A stretch of DNA of 64,000 nt. Source: Pseudomonas sp. MAG733B. GTDB taxonomy: Bacteria > Pseudomonadota > Gammaproteobacteria > Pseudomonadales > Pseudomonadaceae. The position numbers and the translations under genes are program-made. The notes beneath the pieces are model-generated. The model was not told the origin of the DNA. It did not search any database and saw only the letters and a program-made list of their open reading frames with translations. Where the stretch lies: contig NZ_CP145732.1 of the NCBI RefSeq assembly GCF_036884845.1, forward strand, positions 4,092,001-4,156,000, read 5' to 3'. Each line of letters starts with the position of its first letter. The first letter of the stretch is position 1. Of the stretch, positions 48,153 through 59,791 are shown in pieces.

Positions 48153-49778
48153 ATGAGCACAGCAGATCTCCTTGGCAACCTGTTTCCCGAGGCCGGCAGC
48201 ATCCCGGAAAAATACCGTCTCGAAAGCCAGATCGAGCAACGCGAATACCTGGTCGACGGCGTCCTGAAAACCTGGTCCGGCCCCCTCGCCCAGGTCCGCA
48301 GCCCGGTGTACCTGACCGGCGAAAATGGCGACGAACAAGTGATCCTCGGCAGCACGCCGCTGCTTGACGCCGAAACCGCTTTGACCGCCCTCGACGCCGC
48401 CGTCCGCGCCTATGATCGCGGCCAGGGTTTGTGGCCGACGATGCGCGTGGCCGAGCGTATCCAGCACGTCGAAACCTTCCTCGGCCGCATGCGCGAACAG
48501 CGTGAGGCCGTGGTCAAATTGCTGATGTGGGAAATCGGCAAAAACCTGAAGGATTCGGAAAAAGAGTTCGACCGCACCTGCGATTACATCGTCGACACGA
48601 TCAACGCCCTGAAGGAACTCGACCGTCGCTCCAGCCGCTTTGAACTGGAGCAGGACACTCTCGGGCAGATCCGCCGCGTGCCGATGGGCGTGGCACTGTG
48701 CATGGGACCTTACAACTATCCGTTGAACGAAACCTTCACCACCCTGATTCCGGCGCTGATCATGGGCAACACCGTGGTGTTCAAACCGGCGAAACTCGGC
48801 GTGCTGTTGATTCGCCCATTGCTGGAAGCCTTCCGCGACAGCTTCCCGGCCGGGGTGATCAACGTGATCTACGGTAGCGGTCGCGAAACGGTCAGCGCGC
48901 TGATGGCCAGCGGCAACATCGATATCTTTGCGTTCATAGGCACCAACAAAGCCGCCAGCGACCTGAAAAAACTGCACCCGCGTCCGCACCGCTTGCGTGC
49001 GGCGCTGGGGCTGGATGCGAAGAACCCCGGCATCGTCCTGCCGGAAGTGGATCTGGACAACGCCGTGAACGAAGCCGTTACCGGCTCCCTGTCCTTCAAC
49101 GGCCAGCGCTGCACCGCGTTGAAAATCCTCTTCGTCCACGAAGACGTGGTCGATGCGTTCATCGAGAAATTCAACGCCAAACTCGCCACCCTCAAACCGG
49201 GCATGCCGTGGGAAAGTGGCGTGGCCCTGACGCCGCTGCCGGAATCGGGCAAGGTTGATTATTTGCATTCGCTGGTGGCCGACGCCGTCGGCAAAGGCGC
49301 GAAAGTGGTGAACCCCAATGGCGGCGAGGCTCGCGCATCGTTCTTCTATCCCGCCGTGCTGTATCCGGTGACGCCGCAGATGCGTGTCTATCAGGAAGAA
49401 CAATTCGGCCCGGTGGTGCCGATCGTGCCCTACCGGCATCTGGACACGGTGATCGATTACGTCCTGGAATCAGACTTCGGCCAGCAACTGAGCATCTTCG
49501 GCACCAACCCGGTCGCGGTTGGCCGCCTGGTCGACACCTTTGCCAACCAGGTCGGGCGCATCAATCTCAACGCCCAGTGCCAGCGCGGCCCCGACACCTA
49601 TCCGTTCAACGGCCGCAAAAACTCCGCCGAGGGCACCTTGTCGGTGCATGACGCCTTGCGGGTGTTTTCGATCCGTACATTGGTGGCGACCAAATTCCAG
49701 GAGACCAACAAGGATCTGATCAGCGAGATCATCAGCGGCCGCAGTTCGAGCTTTTTGACCACTGATTACATCTTCTGA
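48153..49778 (+). CDS. NADP-dependent glyceraldehyde-3-phosphate dehydrogenase-like aldehyde dehydrogenase
   Basis: A 541-residue aldehyde dehydrogenase of the GapN-like group. The catalytic cysteine is Cys320 (FNGQRCTALK), the nucleotide and oxyanion asparagine is in GPYNYPLNETF, and SFNGQRCTALKILFV is intact. Where most ALDHs have the general-base glutamate in LELGGK, this protein reads LGLDAKNPGIV, so that glutamate is missing. It would oxidise an aldehyde such as glyceraldehyde-3-phosphate to the acid without phosphorylation, generating NADPH. The next gene starts within 12 bp. Confidence 0.82.
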   Translation: MSTADLLGNLFPEAGSIPEKYRLESQIEQREYLVDGVLKTWSGPLAQVRSPVYLTGENGDEQVILGSTPLLDAETALTALDAAVRAYDRGQGLWPTMRVAERIQHVETFLGRMREQREAVVKLLMWEIGKNLKDSEKEFDRTCDYIVDTINALKELDRRSSRFELEQDTLGQIRRVPMGVALCMGPYNYPLNETFTTLIPALIMGNTVVFKPAKLGVLLIRPLLEAFRDSFPAGVINVIYGSGRETVSALMASGNIDIFAFIGTNKAASDLKKLHPRPHRLRAALGLDAKNPGIVLPEVDLDNAVNEAVTGSLSFNGQRCTALKILFVHEDVVDAFIEKFNAKLATLKPGMPWESGVALTPLPESGKVDYLHSLVADAVGKGAKVVNPNGGEARASFFYPAVLYPVTPQMRVYQEEQFGPVVPIVPYRHLDTVIDYVLESDFGQQLSIFGTNPVAVGRLVDTFANQVGRINLNAQCQRGPDTYPFNGRKNSAEGTLSVHDALRVFSIRTLVATKFQETNKDLISEIISGRSSSFLTTDYIF

Positions 49779-49789
49779 GGAGCGCAAAC

Positions 49790-50863
49790 CTGAGCACATC
49801 CATCGCGCTTCGCCTGCCACCGCTGCTGCGCCGGTTATTGCGTCCGCTGCTGGACCCGTACCGGCGCTATCGCCATGCGCGGATGATCCATGCGGTACGC
49901 GTGTCGCTCGGATTATTGGCGTCGATCGCGCTGACTACCGGCATCAACCTGCCTCACGGTGAGTGGGCGTCGGTGACGATGCTGGTGGTGATCGGCGGCT
50001 TGCAGCATCACGGCAACATCGGCAAAAAAGCTGCGGAACGGGCGATCGGTACCCTGGTCGGAGCGGCTGTCGGCCTGGTCCTGGTGGTCCAGCAATCCTG
50101 GCTCGGCATGCCGTGGCTGACCTACTTCGCCATGGCCGTGGTGTGCGGTTTTTTCTCCTACCACGCCATCGGCAAAGGTGGATACACCGCGTTGCTGGCG
50201 GGAATTACCGTGTTTATCGTCGCTGGGCACGGTGACAATCCAGTCGCTGACGGGTTGTGGCGCGGGGTGGATATCCTGATCGGTATCGCTCTGGCATTGG
50301 CGTTTTCCTTCGCCCTGCCGCTGTATGCGGTTTATTCCTGGCGCTACAACCTGGCTGACGCCCTGCGTGATTGCGCGACAATCTACGCGCGCATTATCAA
50401 CGGCCAACCCGTCACCGCTGACGAACACCTCAAACTCATGGGGCGCCTGAATACCGTGATGGTGCAACTGCGTTCGCTGATGCCATCGGTATCCAAGGAG
50501 GTGAAGATTTCCATGAACGAACTCGATGCCATTCAGCGTCAGCTACGCCTGTGTGTCAGTACGCTGGAGATTCTCGCCAACACCCGACCCGATACTAGTG
50601 ACCCCGAGACCGTGGCTCGCCTGCGCTCGGCGTTGAAAGCAGAGCACCGGCTGATCCACGTACAACTGATCGGCATGGCCCGGGCGCTGAAGACCGGCGT
50701 CGTCCATCGCTTGAATCGTCCTATGGAGTTGCCGATCGTCAGCCTCGATGCTCCGGTCTACAACGCCCTCGACGGTTACCGTTTGTTGACTCAACAACTG
50801 GCTGCGAACATTGGCGAGATGCGCCAGCGACTGGCCAAAACTGCGCCGCGCTGGAACATCTGA
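49790..50863 (+). CDS. FUSC-family inner-membrane protein
   Basis: About 357 residues if translation starts at CTG 49790, which has a strong GAGGAG seven bases ahead; a TTG at 49838 has none. The sequence shows at least four membrane helices (VSLGLLASIALTTGINL, VTMLVVIGGLQHHGNIG, YFAMAVVCGFFSYHAIG, ILIGIALALAFSFALPLY) followed by a long soluble helical domain (STLEILANTRPDTSDPETV), as in YccS/AaeB-like FUSC aromatic-acid exporters. It is 11 bp after the dehydrogenase gene and probably co-transcribed. Confidence 0.78.
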   Translation: MSTSIALRLPPLLRRLLRPLLDPYRRYRHARMIHAVRVSLGLLASIALTTGINLPHGEWASVTMLVVIGGLQHHGNIGKKAAERAIGTLVGAAVGLVLVVQQSWLGMPWLTYFAMAVVCGFFSYHAIGKGGYTALLAGITVFIVAGHGDNPVADGLWRGVDILIGIALALAFSFALPLYAVYSWRYNLADALRDCATIYARIINGQPVTADEHLKLMGRLNTVMVQLRSLMPSVSKEVKISMNELDAIQRQLRLCVSTLEILANTRPDTSDPETVARLRSALKAEHRLIHVQLIGMARALKTGVVHRLNRPMELPIVSLDAPVYNALDGYRLLTQQLAANIGEMRQRLAKTAPRWNI

Positions 50864-51058
50864 CGCACTGTTAAACAAGTTAAAAATCCGAGCAAAACGA
50901 AAACGCAACCTTATAAGCGATACTTTATATTTACTGAAAACACCACAAAACCGACATGACTTTTTATAAGCACAATAATGAGCCTTTTTTAATAGCCAGC
51001 AGATCGCCCCTTATTACAATGAGGCGAGCCATAAAGCCAAATACAATAGGGATATTAA

Positions 51059-53059
51059 ATGCTTAGCATCAGCCGCACTAGCTTAACGCCCACCGCGTCC
51101 TTCAAGTATATAGAAGCTGAAACTGCCTACGGCGACCAACGCTTGATATTCGACGACACAAACAGAGTTCTTTATTCATTAATAACAGCATCCAACACAA
51201 CAAAACCCACGCTCCAACTTCACAGTGCAATACCAGAAATAAGAGACCTCGGCATTACGTTCATCAAAAAAATCATCCATTGCGACACCACGACAATGCT
51301 GAAAGAGCCTGGACTGGTTCGTACCATTCTCGGCCAATATAACAACAACAGTTCAATTCCCGATCGATTTCGAGCCATCACTGATCTGAGTAAAATTGAA
51401 AAAACGCAGTACAAACAAATTTCCGACGCAAAATCAACTGAAATTCTTCGCCGCGACTTAATCTCGCTCATTGACGAAGACTTAAGAGAACAATTCAATA
51501 TCGTGTTGAACGAATGGGCAACATACGGAATATCAGCAAGTGAAATCGACGCCCGCACCTATACAACCTTCAAGGCTTTTTATGATGAAGCCATGGATAG
51601 CTATGCGACAAAAAAAGAAGATTATACAAAGCTCGACTTTGCCACACAAAATGTCAAGCCGCTCATAACAGACAGCCGTTGTCTCGACGCAAAACTGACG
51701 CCCCTACAAATCTTTAAAGCCGCGTACCAATTGGGTGACATTCCAGCCGTGTCAAACTTTCGCTTCATGGACAATCCTGCCAGCAAAGATGACGGAAAAT
51801 ACAGAGAGTGGATGTTTCACTTCGACAACAGCAACTACGCTGCAGAATTCAAACTGATCACGACCCGGGTGACGGATACCTGCCAAGCGAACAAGGAACA
51901 ATGTTTGGCAGCCTTCCCCTATGACACTTCCCAATCCATTCGATTTACCAAAAGCGAAGCCGCCACCAAATTTCCTGATTTCGAGGATCTGGAGAAGGAA
52001 TTTCACAACGTACCTGGTGCAAGCTACGTAGTCATTCAAAATTCGGATAACGATACACCAATCGAAACCGGTATCCGAACCGAAATGATCGTTCATCACC
52101 GATCGGCCAGCAGTACCGACGATCAGGGTGAATCCAGAAGTTCCGAGCTAATGACCTTTCATGGAGTGGATCGGTGCAAGCCCTTTCTCTCAGCCCCTGA
52201 ACTGACGGTGGCCAAACACCTTACGCCGTTACAACTATTTGTATTAGGCGGATTCAAAAATACTGACCCTAAAAAATTCATGGAATACTTCACAGCGGAG
52301 AAGCAAACCCTTAATTTGCAAATTCGAGATCTTGTTGAAGGGTATCGGATCAAGTCTCTAGATAGCTTGATAGTAGCAAGATTCAACGAGACAGATACAA
52401 CAGTGATTAATAAATCTTTGTTCAACAAGCAGATTGACACTTACGAAGATCTCCCGGAAGTACTTGATAGAATTCCTGATCTGGCAGATGAAAGCCGTTG
52501 GCAAAAAGAAACTATCTTCAAGATGGTTCCGATGCTGATGAATTACGACCAGAACGCAGAACTCAAACCTGACTGCACAGAAAACGATGCCTTTCCGGCC
52601 CGAACCCAACTCAGAGAACGAACCTACGAAGCATTTGTCAGACCACTGGAAAGGGACTTGCCTGAAGTAAAATTTGGTACGGAACAGCAACATATCCTCC
52701 CTTTGGACAAGATCATCGATGCCGTACAACACATCCATGACTTCTACATCACCTACAACTCCCTTTTGAAAGCCACCCAGCCTCATAATAAGCTGCTAAG
52801 TTTATTTGAAAGTCGCGCAGCGCTCGCAAAAGAATACACCGAACAGTTCCAATCAAGGGCGACCCTCCCGGAAACGCACCAGACACTCACACTTTTTACA
52901 TATTACATGCTTGACGACCTGGATACCGTCAGCCAGGAATTCTCCGACAACAACATAAAAATCGACAACACCACATTTGAAACAATCAAACAAGCAAGAA
53001 TACCGCTATTACAACACTTCATCACTCATCGAGTATTAAGCGACAGATTGAAAATCTGA
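51059..53059 (+). CDS. Unknown 666-residue protein in an AT-rich insert
   Basis: I do not recognise this protein. It has no signal peptide or membrane segment. The N-terminus is serine/threonine-rich (MLSISRTSLTPTASFKYIEA), as in many secreted effectors, but that is not proof. A motif repeats: LTPLQIF (residue 213) and LTPLQLF (388), each preceded by a cysteine 5 or 15 residues earlier. The rest is rich in charged and polar residues with predicted helices. ATG 51059 follows TAGGGATATTAA, a fair ribosome site. It is a possible toxin or effector; the second unknown gene follows 93 bp later. Confidence 0.8.
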   Translation: MLSISRTSLTPTASFKYIEAETAYGDQRLIFDDTNRVLYSLITASNTTKPTLQLHSAIPEIRDLGITFIKKIIHCDTTTMLKEPGLVRTILGQYNNNSSIPDRFRAITDLSKIEKTQYKQISDAKSTEILRRDLISLIDEDLREQFNIVLNEWATYGISASEIDARTYTTFKAFYDEAMDSYATKKEDYTKLDFATQNVKPLITDSRCLDAKLTPLQIFKAAYQLGDIPAVSNFRFMDNPASKDDGKYREWMFHFDNSNYAAEFKLITTRVTDTCQANKEQCLAAFPYDTSQSIRFTKSEAATKFPDFEDLEKEFHNVPGASYVVIQNSDNDTPIETGIRTEMIVHHRSASSTDDQGESRSSELMTFHGVDRCKPFLSAPELTVAKHLTPLQLFVLGGFKNTDPKKFMEYFTAEKQTLNLQIRDLVEGYRIKSLDSLIVARFNETDTTVINKSLFNKQIDTYEDLPEVLDRIPDLADESRWQKETIFKMVPMLMNYDQNAELKPDCTENDAFPARTQLRERTYEAFVRPLERDLPEVKFGTEQQHILPLDKIIDAVQHIHDFYITYNSLLKATQPHNKLLSLFESRAALAKEYTEQFQSRATLPETHQTLTLFTYYMLDDLDTVSQEFSDNNIKIDNTTFETIKQARIPLLQHFITHRVLSDRLKI

Positions 53060-53080
53060 TATTGAATCAAACCCCCTATA

Positions 53081-53121
53081 TAAAGTGAAATTGGCATCTG
53101 CATTGATACCCCAATCACTTT
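53081..53121. other. Hairpin between the two unknown genes
   Basis: TAAAGTGAAATTGG (53081-53094) pairs with CCAATCACTTTA (53110-53121), leaving a two-base bulge and a 15-base loop. It lies 20 bp after the first stop and 31 bp before the second start. It lacks a T run, so it is more likely an mRNA-level or attenuator structure than a terminator. Confidence 0.4.
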
Positions 53122-53152
53122 AAAAGCGTTATTTCAAGTTTGGACCAGACCA

Positions 53153-54358
53153 ATGATCAACAACAATTACAGATCAACGATACAGAATTTCATTTCAGTC
53201 GCCGAAAACGATCAAGCGCACGTGGATCAACTAGTAGAAAAAAAGAACAACTACTACTTTACCGATATGAGTCAGGTGCGAGGCCACAGCGATAGCAACA
53301 TTGAAAAAATGACTCATCCACTTTCCCAAACTGATGACGTGGATTATTTATCACCCTACATGATTGACCTGTTAGGCAGAACGACAACTTTAGCTTTTGC
53401 CGAGAAGGTGCTCCAGTCCCCAAGAAAACAGATACTGGACCAATTGGGTATTGACGACTCACAACAAACACAACGTCAAAGCAGGCTACACTCCGATCAG
53501 ATCGCAATCTCAAGATTTTACAACCATAGACCCGAAGCGCGCCCGCTATCCCTGACATTAAATGGTTCTCCATTTCTGGAGCAGGAGCCCACAACGCCAT
53601 ACTTCATCGGTCAAAAAATCATCACTCCTGATTTCACCATACACAGACGTGAAGAAAGTACTCACTTGCTGGACTTGCTACGGTGCAAGTTTCGTGATGA
53701 TAGCGGAAAACCGTTTGATAAAGCTCCGATCGAAAGACTGCAAAAATACAACAGCACCGTACATTTAAACGAATCCCGCCGAAACGAAAATGGAGCATCC
53801 AACAAGGCAGACTACTTTGTTGAGATGGCAGAGTACCTAATACAGAGAGGAAACCCTGGAGATTTTATCGTACAAAATTCACTGGAAAGCAGTAGCGATA
53901 AGAACACACCCCATTTTCAATACGTCCCGAACCAGGTACCCCTCCCCATTTTCTTTCATATACCGCCATACGATGAAAGCATCGACACACAACGAGTCGA
54001 TTGGCATCTACCGTCTCTTTACCAGAAGGTCGACCTACGGCAACCTGACTGGAGAGCAAAAATCATTTATCTGCAACAGTCATCTCAACAGCTGCTGAAC
54101 CATAACAACATTAGCACCACTCCCGTGTTCAGGATGGTAGATCAAAGCCACATTGAGGTTCTTCTTGTTTTTAAGAAAGACGGTACTCCCATTTGGAATA
54201 TGGCATTAGAGGACTCCCAACACACTCCCGGATGGCTAGAAGCCTGCGGTATATTTATCGCCAACACCCCCAAGGCTGAAGTATTCAATCTCAAAGGAGC
54301 ACAACAATATTATGCAGTTTATAGCGTGCCGGCAGAGTGTATAGGCGATTTTTTTTGA
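53153..54358 (+). CDS. Unknown 401-residue protein in an AT-rich insert
   Basis: No family recognised, and no signal peptide or membrane segment. The N-terminus (MINNNYRSTIQNFISVAEN) is polar; the middle has many His, Asp and Tyr residues (IHRREESTHLLDLLRCKFRD; ADYFVEMAEYLIQRG) and a hydrophobic patch VPLPIFFHIPPYDESID. A single ribosome-like TGGA precedes the ATG. It is co-directional with the 666-residue gene and may be its partner (immunity, chaperone or second effector). The stop lies two bases from that of the convergent EamA gene. Confidence 0.78.
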   Translation: MINNNYRSTIQNFISVAENDQAHVDQLVEKKNNYYFTDMSQVRGHSDSNIEKMTHPLSQTDDVDYLSPYMIDLLGRTTTLAFAEKVLQSPRKQILDQLGIDDSQQTQRQSRLHSDQIAISRFYNHRPEARPLSLTLNGSPFLEQEPTTPYFIGQKIITPDFTIHRREESTHLLDLLRCKFRDDSGKPFDKAPIERLQKYNSTVHLNESRRNENGASNKADYFVEMAEYLIQRGNPGDFIVQNSLESSSDKNTPHFQYVPNQVPLPIFFHIPPYDESIDTQRVDWHLPSLYQKVDLRQPDWRAKIIYLQQSSQQLLNHNNISTTPVFRMVDQSHIEVLLVFKKDGTPIWNMALEDSQHTPGWLEACGIFIANTPKAEVFNLKGAQQYYAVYSVPAECIGDFF

Positions 54359-54360
54359 AA

Positions 54361-55254
54361 CTACTGCGTTACTGTGCGCCGAAACTTCAGGCTCCAGCCC
54401 TGCTGCATGCCCGCAGCCGCCAGCAGAATCGCGGCAACCCCGAGCCATTGCAGTGGTTCCAGACGATGGCCGAAGGCAAACCAGTCGACGAAAATCGCTG
54501 CGATCGGATAAATGAACGACAGCGCGCCGGTCAGCGCCGTCGGCAGTTTCTGGATCGCGCCGTACAGCAGCACATACATCACGCCTGTGTGCACGATACC
54601 CAGCGTAATCAGGCTGGCCCAGGCGCTCGGCGCTTGCGGCAGTGCTGAAAAATGGGCGAACGGCGCGAGCAACAACACGCCGGTGCTGACCTGGATCAGC
54701 GCGATCAGATGCGGCGGCGTGCCGGTGAGGCGCTTGATGATCAACGCGGCAATCGCGTAGAGGAACGCAGCGCCCAGCGCCAGAGCGATACCCAGCAAGT
54801 ACTCGCTGCCACTCTCGCCCTGCCCGCCATGGGCACTGACAATCGCCAGCATCCCGAGAAACGAGACACCCAGCCACGCCATTTTCTGCAAGGTGATTTT
54901 CTCGTTGAGAAACACCGCGGCCAAACCCACCAGCATGAACGGCTGAACGTTGTAGACCGCGGTGCCGATGGCAATCGAGGCGCGAGAATAGGACGCGAAC
55001 AACAGCACCCAGTTGCCGACAATCGCCACCCCGCTGAGCACGGCCAACAGGAACGTGGTACGGGTCAGAATGTCGGGGCGCAGGAAGCCGAATGCCGCGC
55101 AAATCAGCAGCAGCGTGCCAGTGCCGAACAGGCAGCGCCAGAACACCACGTCCAGTACCGGTTGCCCGGACACCAGCACAAACCAGCCGATGGTTCCGGA
55201 GATCAGCATGGCGGCGGTCATTTCGAACGAGCCGCGACGTATTGTGTTGTCCAT
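54361..55254 (-). CDS. EamA/DMT-family metabolite exporter
   Basis: A 297-residue protein with ten predicted membrane helices arranged as two EamA halves (EMTAAMLISGTIGWFVLVSG at the start; GVLLLAPFAHFSALP; GALSFIYPIAAIFVDW). Such transporters export amino acids, nucleosides or drugs. It is divergent from an Lrp/AsnC regulator with a 136-bp gap, the usual exporter-regulator pair, so an amino acid is the best guess. Confidence 0.9.
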   Translation of the reverse strand: MDNTIRRGSFEMTAAMLISGTIGWFVLVSGQPVLDVVFWRCLFGTGTLLLICAAFGFLRPDILTRTTFLLAVLSGVAIVGNWVLLFASYSRASIAIGTAVYNVQPFMLVGLAAVFLNEKITLQKMAWLGVSFLGMLAIVSAHGGQGESGSEYLLGIALALGAAFLYAIAALIIKRLTGTPPHLIALIQVSTGVLLLAPFAHFSALPQAPSAWASLITLGIVHTGVMYVLLYGAIQKLPTALTGALSFIYPIAAIFVDWFAFGHRLEPLQWLGVAAILLAAAGMQQGWSLKFRRTVTQ

Positions 55255-55390
55255 CTTCAGACTCCTTTGTTGATGGGCAAATTATGCCGATCAGCCTTGG
55301 GGCTTCTCCAGCGCAAAAAGCAGGCTAAACTCGGAATCTGCCTTTAATGCGAAGGCAATTTTGAAAAACTGCCTAATTGAGGTTTTGGCC

Positions 55391-55828
55391 ATGACCGATG
55401 ATATCGACCAAGTGCTGATTACGGCATTGATGGAAGACTCGCGACGTTCGCTCAAGGCCCTGGCGCAAATCAGCGGCCTGTCTTCGCCCAGCGTCGCCGA
55501 ACGCCTGCGTCGCCTCGAAGAGCGCGGCGTGCTCAAGGGCTACACCGTGGAAATCGACCCGAAATGCTTCGGCTATCAACTCCAGGCTATCGTGCGCATT
55601 CGCCCGCTGCCAGGCCAGTTGCAGGAGGTCGAACGGCAAATCATGGCCATTCCCGAGTTCACCGAGTGCGACAAAGTGACTGGCGACGACTGCTTCATCG
55701 CCCGTCTGCACGTGCGTTCAATGGAACAATTGGACACCCTGCTCGACCGTCTCAACACCCACGCGGAAACCAATACTGCGATCGTCAAGAAAACTCCGGT
55801 CAAGCGCCGGTTGCCGCCGATGGCGTGA
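55391..55828 (+). CDS. Lrp/AsnC-family regulator
   Basis: A 145-residue protein from ATG 55391: helix-turn-helix (ALAQISGLSSPSVAERLRRL) and a C-terminal RAM/ACT-like domain (EFTECDKVTGDDCFIARLHV). Lrp-type regulators respond to amino acids and normally control a divergent transporter, here the EamA exporter. A terminator at 55854 follows. Confidence 0.92.
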   Translation: MTDDIDQVLITALMEDSRRSLKALAQISGLSSPSVAERLRRLEERGVLKGYTVEIDPKCFGYQLQAIVRIRPLPGQLQEVERQIMAIPEFTECDKVTGDDCFIARLHVRSMEQLDTLLDRLNTHAETNTAIVKKTPVKRRLPPMA

Positions 55829-57667: not shown

Positions 57668-58645
57668 TCATACCCGATAAAAGTGGCGATACCAATTCAC
57701 AAATTGCGGCACACCGGCTTCAATCTCCACTTGCGGAGAAAAGCCGACCCAGTCGGCCAGCGCCGAAACATCGGCCCATGTATTGATGACATCGCCAGCC
57801 TGCATCGGCAAAAAATTGCGCTGAGCTTTAATGCCCAATGCCGATTCCAGACACTCGACAAAGTCCAGCAGCGCGACCGGCTTGCCGCGCCCTATGTTGA
57901 ATATTCGGTTGACGCCTTCGGTCTCGGTTTCCGGGACCGGGGGCCTCGGGCGCAGTCGGACAATGCTTTCGACAATGTCGTCAACGTAGGTGAAATCCCG
58001 CGCCATTTGACCATGATGGTAAATATCGATTGGCCAGCCTTGAAGAATCGCTTCGGTGAACTTGAACAGCGCCATGTCGGGCCTGCCCCAAGGTCCGTAG
58101 ACGGTAAAAAAACGAAGCCCGCTGGCTTTCAGGCCATAAAGATGGCAATAGCTGTGGGCAAGCAACTCATTGGCGCGTTTGGTGGCGGCGTACAAGGAAA
58201 CGGGTTGCTCGACTGCATCGTCGACGCTGAATGGCAATTTGCTGTTAGCACCGTACACAGAACTGCTGGATGCATATATCAGGTGCGCTGGTCGATAGTG
58301 TCGACAGGCTTCCAGCACATTCAAAAACCCGACCAGGTTCGATTGCGCGTAGACATCCGGATTCTCCAGTGAGTGACGAACCCCCGCCTGCGCGGCCAGG
58401 TGAATGACTTCTGTGAACCCCTCTTCTTTGAATAACGCCATCAAGGCGGGCTTGTCGACAATGTCCATCGTCTGAAAGCGGAAACCGGGAGACTCGCTCA
58501 GTTGCGCGAGCCGGGCCAGCTTCAGTTTTACGCTATAGTAATCATTGAGGTTGTCGATACCGACAACTTCAAAACCTTCCTCGCATAATCGTTTAGCCGT
58601 GTGATGTCCAATAAATCCTGCAGCGCCCGTCACCAGAATGGTCAT
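57668..58645 (-). CDS. NAD-dependent sugar epimerase (UDP-glucuronate 4-epimerase-like)
   Basis: A 325-residue short-chain-type epimerase from ATG 58645 (a GTG at 58654 is also possible). NAD motif GAAGFIG (residues 7-13), catalytic YAATK, and GKPVALLDFVECLE. It is closest in pattern to UDP-glucuronate 4-epimerases, which make UDP-galacturonate for capsules. It is divergent from the exopolysaccharide operon over a 609-bp AT-rich region, and presumably supplies a precursor for it. Confidence 0.87.
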   Translation of the reverse strand: MTILVTGAAGFIGHHTAKRLCEEGFEVVGIDNLNDYYSVKLKLARLAQLSESPGFRFQTMDIVDKPALMALFKEEGFTEVIHLAAQAGVRHSLENPDVYAQSNLVGFLNVLEACRHYRPAHLIYASSSSVYGANSKLPFSVDDAVEQPVSLYAATKRANELLAHSYCHLYGLKASGLRFFTVYGPWGRPDMALFKFTEAILQGWPIDIYHHGQMARDFTYVDDIVESIVRLRPRPPVPETETEGVNRIFNIGRGKPVALLDFVECLESALGIKAQRNFLPMQAGDVINTWADVSALADWVGFSPQVEIEAGVPQFVNWYRHFYRV

Positions 58646-59254
58646 AATGCCCACCCGCTTGTTGAACCTCAGGCAGCTATTTATAGCGTCGCTTAATCAC
58701 AAGATCCAGTTCATATAACCATGCCCCAATATTGGGTAGTGTCCTCTTGGCAACTAGCCAAACCAATGACTACGGACAGATAAAAAAGTTTAATCCGTTC
58801 GACGGAAAAAAATTCGTCTTAAAAATCAAATATTTGAAAGAAATCAACTTTACTTTTGGATGGATGGCATTTTTTTTGACAAGGAACGTTTGACAGCTTG
58901 TCGAGAGTGGTCAATAACTACACGGGTCTGTTGAAATAGAACACGAATACAGTTTTCTTCGTAGTCTCTATTCCTTAGGCAACTTACGAATTCATTGTTT
59001 TGATCCTGCTCCCTGACAAGGACCGTGCGGTAGCTTTGCCTTTAGAAAACTACTCATTGGTTATACCCGAAAGACTGTCAGATATAACGCACTCGACAAG
59101 TTCACTGTTACATCCATGCAACAGTTGTGACTCATTACTGATACACACTTACGAGCATCGCATATAACAATAACTCTGCCTGACTTAATTACTTATCGGC
59201 CCTCAGTAGAGCCACTGCCTGCCTAAACTTTCGATTTTTACGGAGTTTACCAGC
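58646..59254. other. AT-rich 609-bp divergent leader of the exopolysaccharide operon
   Basis: This gap carries no long coding frame on either strand. It is AT-rich and holds the promoters of the epimerase and rfaH-like genes. The ops-like element at 59026 lies within the likely untranslated leader, and the ribosome site GGAG is 10 bases before the rfaH-like ATG. No other recognisable element was found. Confidence 0.6.
59026..59036 (+). promoter_or_regulatory. ops-like element in the exopolysaccharide leader
   Basis: TGCGGTAGCTT matches the ops core GGCGGTAGCGT at 9 of 11 positions, in the sense strand 219 bp upstream of the RfaH-like gene. ops recruits RfaH to the paused polymerase, so the protein could act on its own operon. 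Confidence 0.6.
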
Positions 59255-59791
59255 ATGCCCGCAATCAGCTCCGAGCGTTCCAACTGGTACCTGTTGCAAT
59301 GCAAACCTCACCAGGACGAACGTGCCCATCTCAATCTGCTTCAACAACACTATGCCGTTTTTCATCCTCAGGTGCTGAGTGAGCGCGTGATTCGTGGAAA
59401 ACGACAGCAGGTACGGGAATCCCTTTTTCCCGGTTATCTGTTTATCCATCTTGGAGGTAACGACAATTGGGCGCCCATACGCTCCACCCGTGGCGTCAGT
59501 CGTTTCGTCGAATTCAATCATGGTCCAGCGACGGTGCCCGAGAACGTCATCGAGCATCTGCGTGCGCGCTGTTTCGAATCATCAATATCTCGCGATGGCC
59601 CGCCGCTTACACCCGGTGACCACCTGCAGATAATCCGTGGGCCACTGTCATCACTCGAGGGAGTTTTCATTACTTCGCAGGGGCCTGAGCGCGTCATGAT
59701 CCTGCTTCAATTTCTGAATCGGAACCAAACGATTTGCATGCCACTACGTGATCTCGAACGTCAGCTATCCTCGTTTCACCCCAATATCTGA
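59255..59791 (+). CDS. RfaH-type transcription antiterminator (NusG paralogue)
   Basis: A 178-residue NusG-like protein: NGN domain at the N-terminus (NWYLLQCKPHQDERAHLNLL; LFPGYLFIHL) and a C-terminal KOW-like part (LTPGDHLQIIRGPLSSLEGV; ERVMILLQFLNRNQTICMPL). It is closest in pattern to RfaH, which binds ops and lets polymerase read through long capsule and exopolysaccharide operons while recruiting ribosomes. Being the first gene of the operon it would control suggests a cis-feedback design. Confidence 0.88.
   Translation: MPAISSERSNWYLLQCKPHQDERAHLNLLQQHYAVFHPQVLSERVIRGKRQQVRESLFPGYLFIHLGGNDNWAPIRSTRGVSRFVEFNHGPATVPENVIEHLRARCFESSISRDGPPLTPGDHLQIIRGPLSSLEGVFITSQGPERVMILLQFLNRNQTICMPLRDLERQLSSFHPNI

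What the first reader, a model, noticed from the sequence alone, without database searches (positions are those of the whole stretch)
50880..54360. Two-gene AT-rich insert with no recognisable family
Composition and codon use change abruptly at both edges, and the two proteins (666 and 401 residues) lack signal peptides, membrane segments and any motif I know. The serine/threonine-rich N-terminus of the first and the tandem pairing suggest an effector or toxin with a partner, but that is inference. Nothing mobile flanks them, so how they entered is also open.
Basis: partly seen in the sequence, partly recalled or inferred. Interest (0 to 1): 0.72.

Follow-up and report, generated by a model that had tools for sequence, protein, structure and literature searches.

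The report
Paired enzyme cassette, oxygenase plus HIT-fold
Two neighbouring bacterial genes that match no named family appear, from predicted structures, to encode an iron-dependent oxygenase and a nucleotide-handling enzyme that travel together as a rare cassette, probably carrying out a small unknown chemical pathway rather than acting as a toxin and its partner.

Summary
Two co-oriented genes (A, 666 aa; B, 401 aa) form the lowest-GC 3-kb stretch of the window (44% against a mean of 59%) and match no Pfam, NCBIfam or PADLOC family above cut-off. They are not orphans: 54 A and 40 B protein clusters exist, and A and B diverge together (r = 0.93). In Pseudomonas the pair is rare (3 of 398 genomes, own included), but all 7 copies read lie at one site beside EamA; empty sites exist. 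AlphaFold models give the lead. A has a phytanoyl-CoA-hydroxylase-type Fe(II)/2-oxoglutarate oxygenase core, with candidate catalytic residues H254, D256, H347, S349, R360 invariant in 39 of 39 rows. B has the HIT/Ap4A-phosphorylase/GalT fold, with candidate nucleophile H254 invariant in 41 of 41 rows but the preceding His lost. Best reading: a two-enzyme pathway on a nucleotide-linked small molecule, carried as an exchangeable accessory cassette. The folds rest on structure comparison; sequence support is absent for A and modest for B. Substrate and role are inferred. The toxin/effector reading has no direct support.

The parts
51059..53059 (+). Gene A, 666 aa: N-terminal beta stretch (about 1-95), Fe(II)/2OG-oxygenase-like core (about 97-421), conserved helical C-terminal part (about 430-666)
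   Evidence: ORF; AlphaFold2 pLDDT 85.0, pTM 0.79; fold
51347..52321 (+). Part of A that aligns with 2OG oxygenases (residues about 97-421; some EctD alignments run on to residue 516)
51818..51826 (+). Candidate HxD iron ligands H254 and D256
   Evidence: invariant in 39 of 39 rows; counterpart of EctD His-146/Asp-148; assignment by motif order and secondary structure, not by superposition
52097..52138 (+). Candidate distal iron ligand H347 plus S349 and R360 (2OG binding)
   Evidence: invariant in 39 of 39 rows; counterpart of EctD His-248/Ser-250/Arg-259; R360 is the first residue of a predicted strand
53153..54358 (+). Gene B, 401 aa: HIT-superfamily fold, closest to Ap4A phosphorylase Apa2
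53912..53914 (+). B H254, candidate nucleophile (xPHFQ where Apa2/GalT have HxHxQ)
   Evidence: invariant 41 of 41; Q256 39 of 41; N242 and D249 41 of 41; aligned with the second His of HxHxQ by hhalign
50977..51020 (+). Upstream block conserved in the six Pseudomonas loci aligned, perhaps the cassette's own promoter
   Evidence: 20 of the 26 invariant columns of the alignment of 6 lie here; no sigma-70 match above chance (3 found, 5.7 expected)
49838..50863 (+). FUSC-family gene, left neighbour
   Evidence: PF04632; directly next to EamA in four empty-site genomes
54361..55254 (-). EamA transporter, right neighbour
   Evidence: PF00892

Best explanation
The insert is a two-enzyme accessory cassette. 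A is a cytosolic Fe(II)/2-oxoglutarate-dependent oxygenase of the phytanoyl-CoA-hydroxylase type with an extra conserved helical domain that may bind an anionic, phosphate-bearing substrate. B is a HIT-superfamily enzyme, nearest in fold to Ap4A phosphorylase/GalT, that would make or break a phospho-linkage to a nucleotide through a covalent histidine. The two act in sequence on one nucleotide-linked small molecule: A oxidises it, and B activates, transfers or releases the nucleotide. The likely output is a specialised metabolite or its detoxification. The cassette carries its own conserved upstream region and is exchanged between strains at one chromosomal site. Shown: pairing, co-divergence, common site, purifying selection, folds of the models, invariant candidate catalytic residues. 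Inferred: catalysis, substrate, order of steps, biological role.
Confidence: 0.6

Rival explanations
1. Stand-alone defence cassette: A and B together alter or destroy a nucleotide or nucleic acid upon phage attack.
For: Rare, AT-rich, same-site exchange with empty sites and divergent alleles, as is common for defence genes (recalled); B fold is a nucleotide enzyme.
Against: No PADLOC match; no relative in the phage records or confirmed in viral contigs; the identified neighbours are ALDH, FUSC, EamA, Lrp-type and BAX-type genes, and no known defence gene was noticed, though neighbours were not scanned against PADLOC.
Confidence: 0.13
2. Toxin or injected effector with its immunity or chaperone partner.
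For: Tandem pairing; in two other genomes the genes lie near toxin-like genes: a weak ETX_MTX2-like ORF between B and A on Serratia pE10 (E 0.0013, below cut-off) and an ORF with a Tc-toxin repeat in the Salmonella locus.
Against: Both proteins model as enzymes; A is on average even more conserved than B (mean identity 0.57 against 0.49 over 18 pairs), unlike a typical toxin/immunity pair; no secretion or toxin gene recognised among the identified Pseudomonas neighbours, although outer ORFs of those loci were not annotated.
Confidence: 0.08
3. Catabolic pair that breaks down an uncommon nucleotide- or phosphonate-like nutrient.
For: Enzyme folds fit; in Providencia the pair sits downstream of an ABC transporter operon and a HAD-type hydrolase whose sequences I read as phosphonate-type (recalled, not tested).
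Against: No transporter or catabolic operon was seen next to the pair in more than one lineage (outer ORFs not annotated).
Confidence: 0.15

Closest known systems
EctD / PhyH-type Fe(II)/2OG oxygenases (PF05721)
   Different: No Pfam or profile match; 666 aa against about 280; a conserved helical C-terminal part; H-to-R spacing 12-15 in rows read against 11 in EctD; the own genome has no PF05721 match
Ap4A phosphorylase Apa2 (PF19327/PF09830) and GalT, HIT superfamily
   Same: Fold over 240 residues; invariant candidate nucleophile His and nearly invariant Gln two after it
   Different: First His of HxHxQ is Thr/Met/Ile/Val; conserved Asp where the Apa2-type proteins have Ser (alignment by hand); no Pfam match; no PF19327 match in the own genome
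MccH/HinT hydrolases giving resistance to peptide-nucleotide antibiotics (PMC7157772, search listing and passages)
   Same: HIT-superfamily enzyme that can be encoded beside biosynthetic genes; altered triad (ExxxxxHxHxKxx) still active
   Different: HinT-like proteins rather than Apa2-like; I know of no oxygenase partner there (recalled); sequence similarity to B not tested

Membership tests
Fe(II)/2OG oxygenases, PhyH type | Double-stranded beta-helix fold | tested here: met
Fe(II)/2OG oxygenases, PhyH type | HxD...H facial triad and 2OG-binding Arg | tested here: met
   invariant 39 of 39 in the expected order; positions inferred from motif and secondary structure, not from superposition
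Fe(II)/2OG oxygenases, PhyH type | Score above the Pfam PF05721 cut-off or profile similarity | tested here: not met
Fe(II)/2OG oxygenases, PhyH type | Iron and 2OG binding, substrate oxidation | not testable with these tools
   needs protein
HIT superfamily | HIT/GalT/Apa2 fold | tested here: met
HIT superfamily | Catalytic (second) His of the motif | tested here: met
   H254 41 of 41, aligned
Ap4A phosphorylase family (Apa2, HxHxQ) | Complete HxHxQ motif and Pfam match | tested here: not met
   first His is T 33, M 4, I 3, V 1 of 41; no such Pfam match among 41 members. So not filed as an Ap4A phosphorylase
Known anti-phage defence systems | PADLOC model match | tested here: not met
   (A and B only)
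Mobile genetic element | Integrase, transposase, repeats or tRNA at the borders | tested here: not met
   in the window: neighbours FUSC and EamA, only short imperfect repeats, no adjacent tRNA; transposase-like ORFs do lie near the Salmonella copy (by reading)

The most novel reading that the evidence does not exclude
A minimal, self-contained two-enzyme system, with no named family for either part, in which a 2-oxoglutarate oxygenase and an Ap4A-phosphorylase-like HIT enzyme make (or neutralise) an oxidised nucleotide-linked compound used in competition or signalling, swapped as divergent alleles at one chromosomal site.
Probability: 0.3. Interest if true: 0.75.

Novelty: new variant of a known kind. 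Interest (0 to 1): 0.5.

Why it matters
Each protein extends a well-studied enzyme superfamily into a family that the profile libraries used here miss, and I know of no described system that pairs the two chemistries (recall, plus searches of the open-licence library, which returned no paper). If the assignments hold, the cassette offers a two-gene entry to an undescribed oxidised nucleotide chemistry in gammaproteobacteria, with concrete residues to test. It also shows a composition 'island' that looks like an old family with divergent alleles at one site, not a recent single import.

Tried and rejected
Sequence searches of Pfam, NCBIfam, PADLOC and PDB with single proteins and profiles gave only sub-threshold, chance-like matches (best Pfam E among members 0.0067 for A and 0.0038 for B, to unrelated families). 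hhalign of A against 20 PhyH proteins gave noise, also after the ORF picking (wrong strand for several loci) was corrected. A second-ring protein search with 12 distant A rows found one protein not seen before, a fragment; only the 7996 candidates sharing most words were scored. Names such as 'Virulence plasmid A protein' (P0015) and 'Decapping nuclease' (P0071) are labels given by a source to single members and were not used. Rfam gave nothing at E up to 1 for 49600-55600. The viral structure library gave no match at E<=0.001; its named top rows are mostly 2OG or phytanoyl-CoA dioxygenases, with unnamed, uncharacterised and one tail-fibre row among them. Decay of the pair in strain ERMR1:02 (L013) was considered and dropped: the neighbours ALDH, FUSC and EamA are split there as well, which suggests an error-rich assembly. 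Simple vertical descent was considered: the unrooted A+B tree of five Pseudomonas loci has the same splits as the flank tree, but with a Salmonella root QTF5+RITq is rejected as one clade (p-AU 0.0097) and so is W+QTF5 (0.038), and fourfold-site divergence is far above that of the flanks; a weaker codon constraint in AT-rich genes could explain part of the latter. Wider context: class-wide search 1 of 321 (the own genome); a nucleotide search of E. coli genomes found nothing; plasmids gave one record; a search meant to find an enterobacterial centre gave at best 46% identity, so none was recognised. Literature: searches returned no paper; they cover only the open-licence library.

Full report
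What is there. Two co-oriented ORFs fill the AT-rich insert: A, 51059-53059 (666 aa), and B, 53153-54358 (401 aa), with FUSC on the left (ends 50863) and EamA on the right on the other strand (its stop at 54361). GC is 0.445 and 0.444, GC3 0.49 and 0.47; the 3-kb windows over the insert are the lowest in the 64 kb (0.441, mean 0.593). There is no hydrophobic segment and no Pfam, NCBIfam or PADLOC match above cut-off. No mobile feature was seen at the edges.

Relatives. A has 54 clusters (one is the window's own protein) and B 40 at E<=10; the weakest are E 2.7e-115 and 8.1e-77 (A down to 41% identity, B to 38%). Sources include Pseudomonas, Salmonella arizonae, Enterobacter, Providencia, Serratia, Xenorhabdus, Aliivibrio and unnamed metagenomes. 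One A cluster is labelled Rhodococcus; I suspect a mislabelled assembly but did not test it. A second-ring search with 12 distant A rows added one fragment. 18 of the 40 B clusters share their longest-contig length with an A cluster, taken as co-location; over these 18 pairs the identity matrices correlate with r = 0.93 (0 of 2000 permutations). Six shorter A forms of 572-587 aa (Xenorhabdus and others) lack most of the N-terminal stretch. On Serratia plasmid pE10 a divergent B (profile E 4e-58) faces away from A, A lies in two overlapping ORFs, and a weakly ETX_MTX2-like ORF lies between them.

Site. In the genus, 3 of 398 genomes (own included) carry A and the same 3 carry B. In all 7 Pseudomonas places read (window, P. 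reinekei L007, QTF5 L009, RIT-PI-q L011, P. azerbaijanoccidentalis L012, ERMR1:02 L013, and the unnamed G404) the pair sits left of EamA. FUSC lies directly to its left in the window, L011, L013 and G404, and is not found in L007, L009 and L012. Among 17 relatives with a close EamA gene (loci L058-L074), four have FUSC-EamA with 5-24 bases between (G002, G005, G019, G021; ALDH also seen in three of the four stretches), one has ALDH-EamA (G010), and the other 12 have other or unidentified sequence within the 1500 bases or fewer held on that side. In QTF5 a 56-base remnant of the FUSC 3' end (45 of 56 identical, score 34 against a maximum of 14 in 200 shuffles; the three other loci tested gave no such remnant) lies to the right of B, so its junction differs from the window's. 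The region just upstream of A is conserved in the six loci aligned, which suggests that the cassette brings its own promoter; a sigma-70 scan found no more than chance. Salmonella and Providencia carry the pair in other contexts.

Rates. Against four relatives, fourfold-site divergence is 0.52-0.65 for A and 0.54-0.69 for B, and 0.21-0.42 for the 11 flank genes compared (not every flank gene was found in all four). dN/dS of A and B is 0.07-0.21 where dS is finite; dS was saturated in several pairs. So both genes are under purifying selection, and the alleles at this site look older than the chromosomes they sit in, as expected of exchange from a diverse pool; weaker codon constraint is a partial alternative. 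The tree evidence is mixed: same unrooted splits as the flanks, different root.

The A model (pLDDT 85.0, pTM 0.79) matches Fe/2OG oxygenases in the 50 listed rows, with 23 Foldseek matches at E<=0.001; in the viral library no match reaches E 0.001, though most named top rows are of the same kind. [quoted passage not shown] the spacing H-to-R is 13 in the window's A and 12 to 15 in other rows read, against 11 in EctD. All five are invariant (39 of 39). H346 is also invariant, so H346 rather than H347 cannot be excluded as the ligand. The C-terminal part carries a second invariant set (N495, D497, Q498, N499, E508, R515, R519, R521), which may form an anion pocket (inference); its fold was hardly tested. 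Profile comparison gives no support for A.

Reading. The evidence supports two soluble enzymes of one pathway, plausibly on a nucleotide-linked substrate, spread as an accessory cassette. Which substrate, and whether the end is a metabolite, detoxification, defence or catabolism, is open. The toxin/effector idea rests only on tandem pairing and on toxin-like neighbours in two other genomes. No paper on this pair was found in searches of the open-licence library.

Noticed in passing
L014:10654-11490 (Serratia marcescens plasmid pE10): An ORF with a weak ETX_MTX2 match (E 0.0013, below the cut-off) lies between divergent B and A; an ORF with S-type pyocin and colicin D domains lies further along the same plasmid.
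   Followed up: partly
L008:5666-6679 (Salmonella enterica subsp. diarizonae): A short RHS-like ORF with a Tc-toxin repeat (PF18807) and transposase-like ORFs lie near the pair, so there it sits in an island-like stretch.
   Followed up: partly
window 58500-59250: A second AT-rich stretch (GC 0.39-0.42 in two 500-base windows), just before an ORF that reads as an RfaH/NusG-like protein (59255-59791; recalled, not searched).
   Followed up: no
L013: ALDH, FUSC, A, B and EamA are all split in strain ERMR1:02, which points to assembly indels rather than decay of the cassette.
   Followed up: partly
window 49838-50863 and L007, L009, L012, L064: The FUSC gene itself is present or absent between ALDH and EamA in different Pseudomonas, with or without the cassette.
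   Followed up: partly
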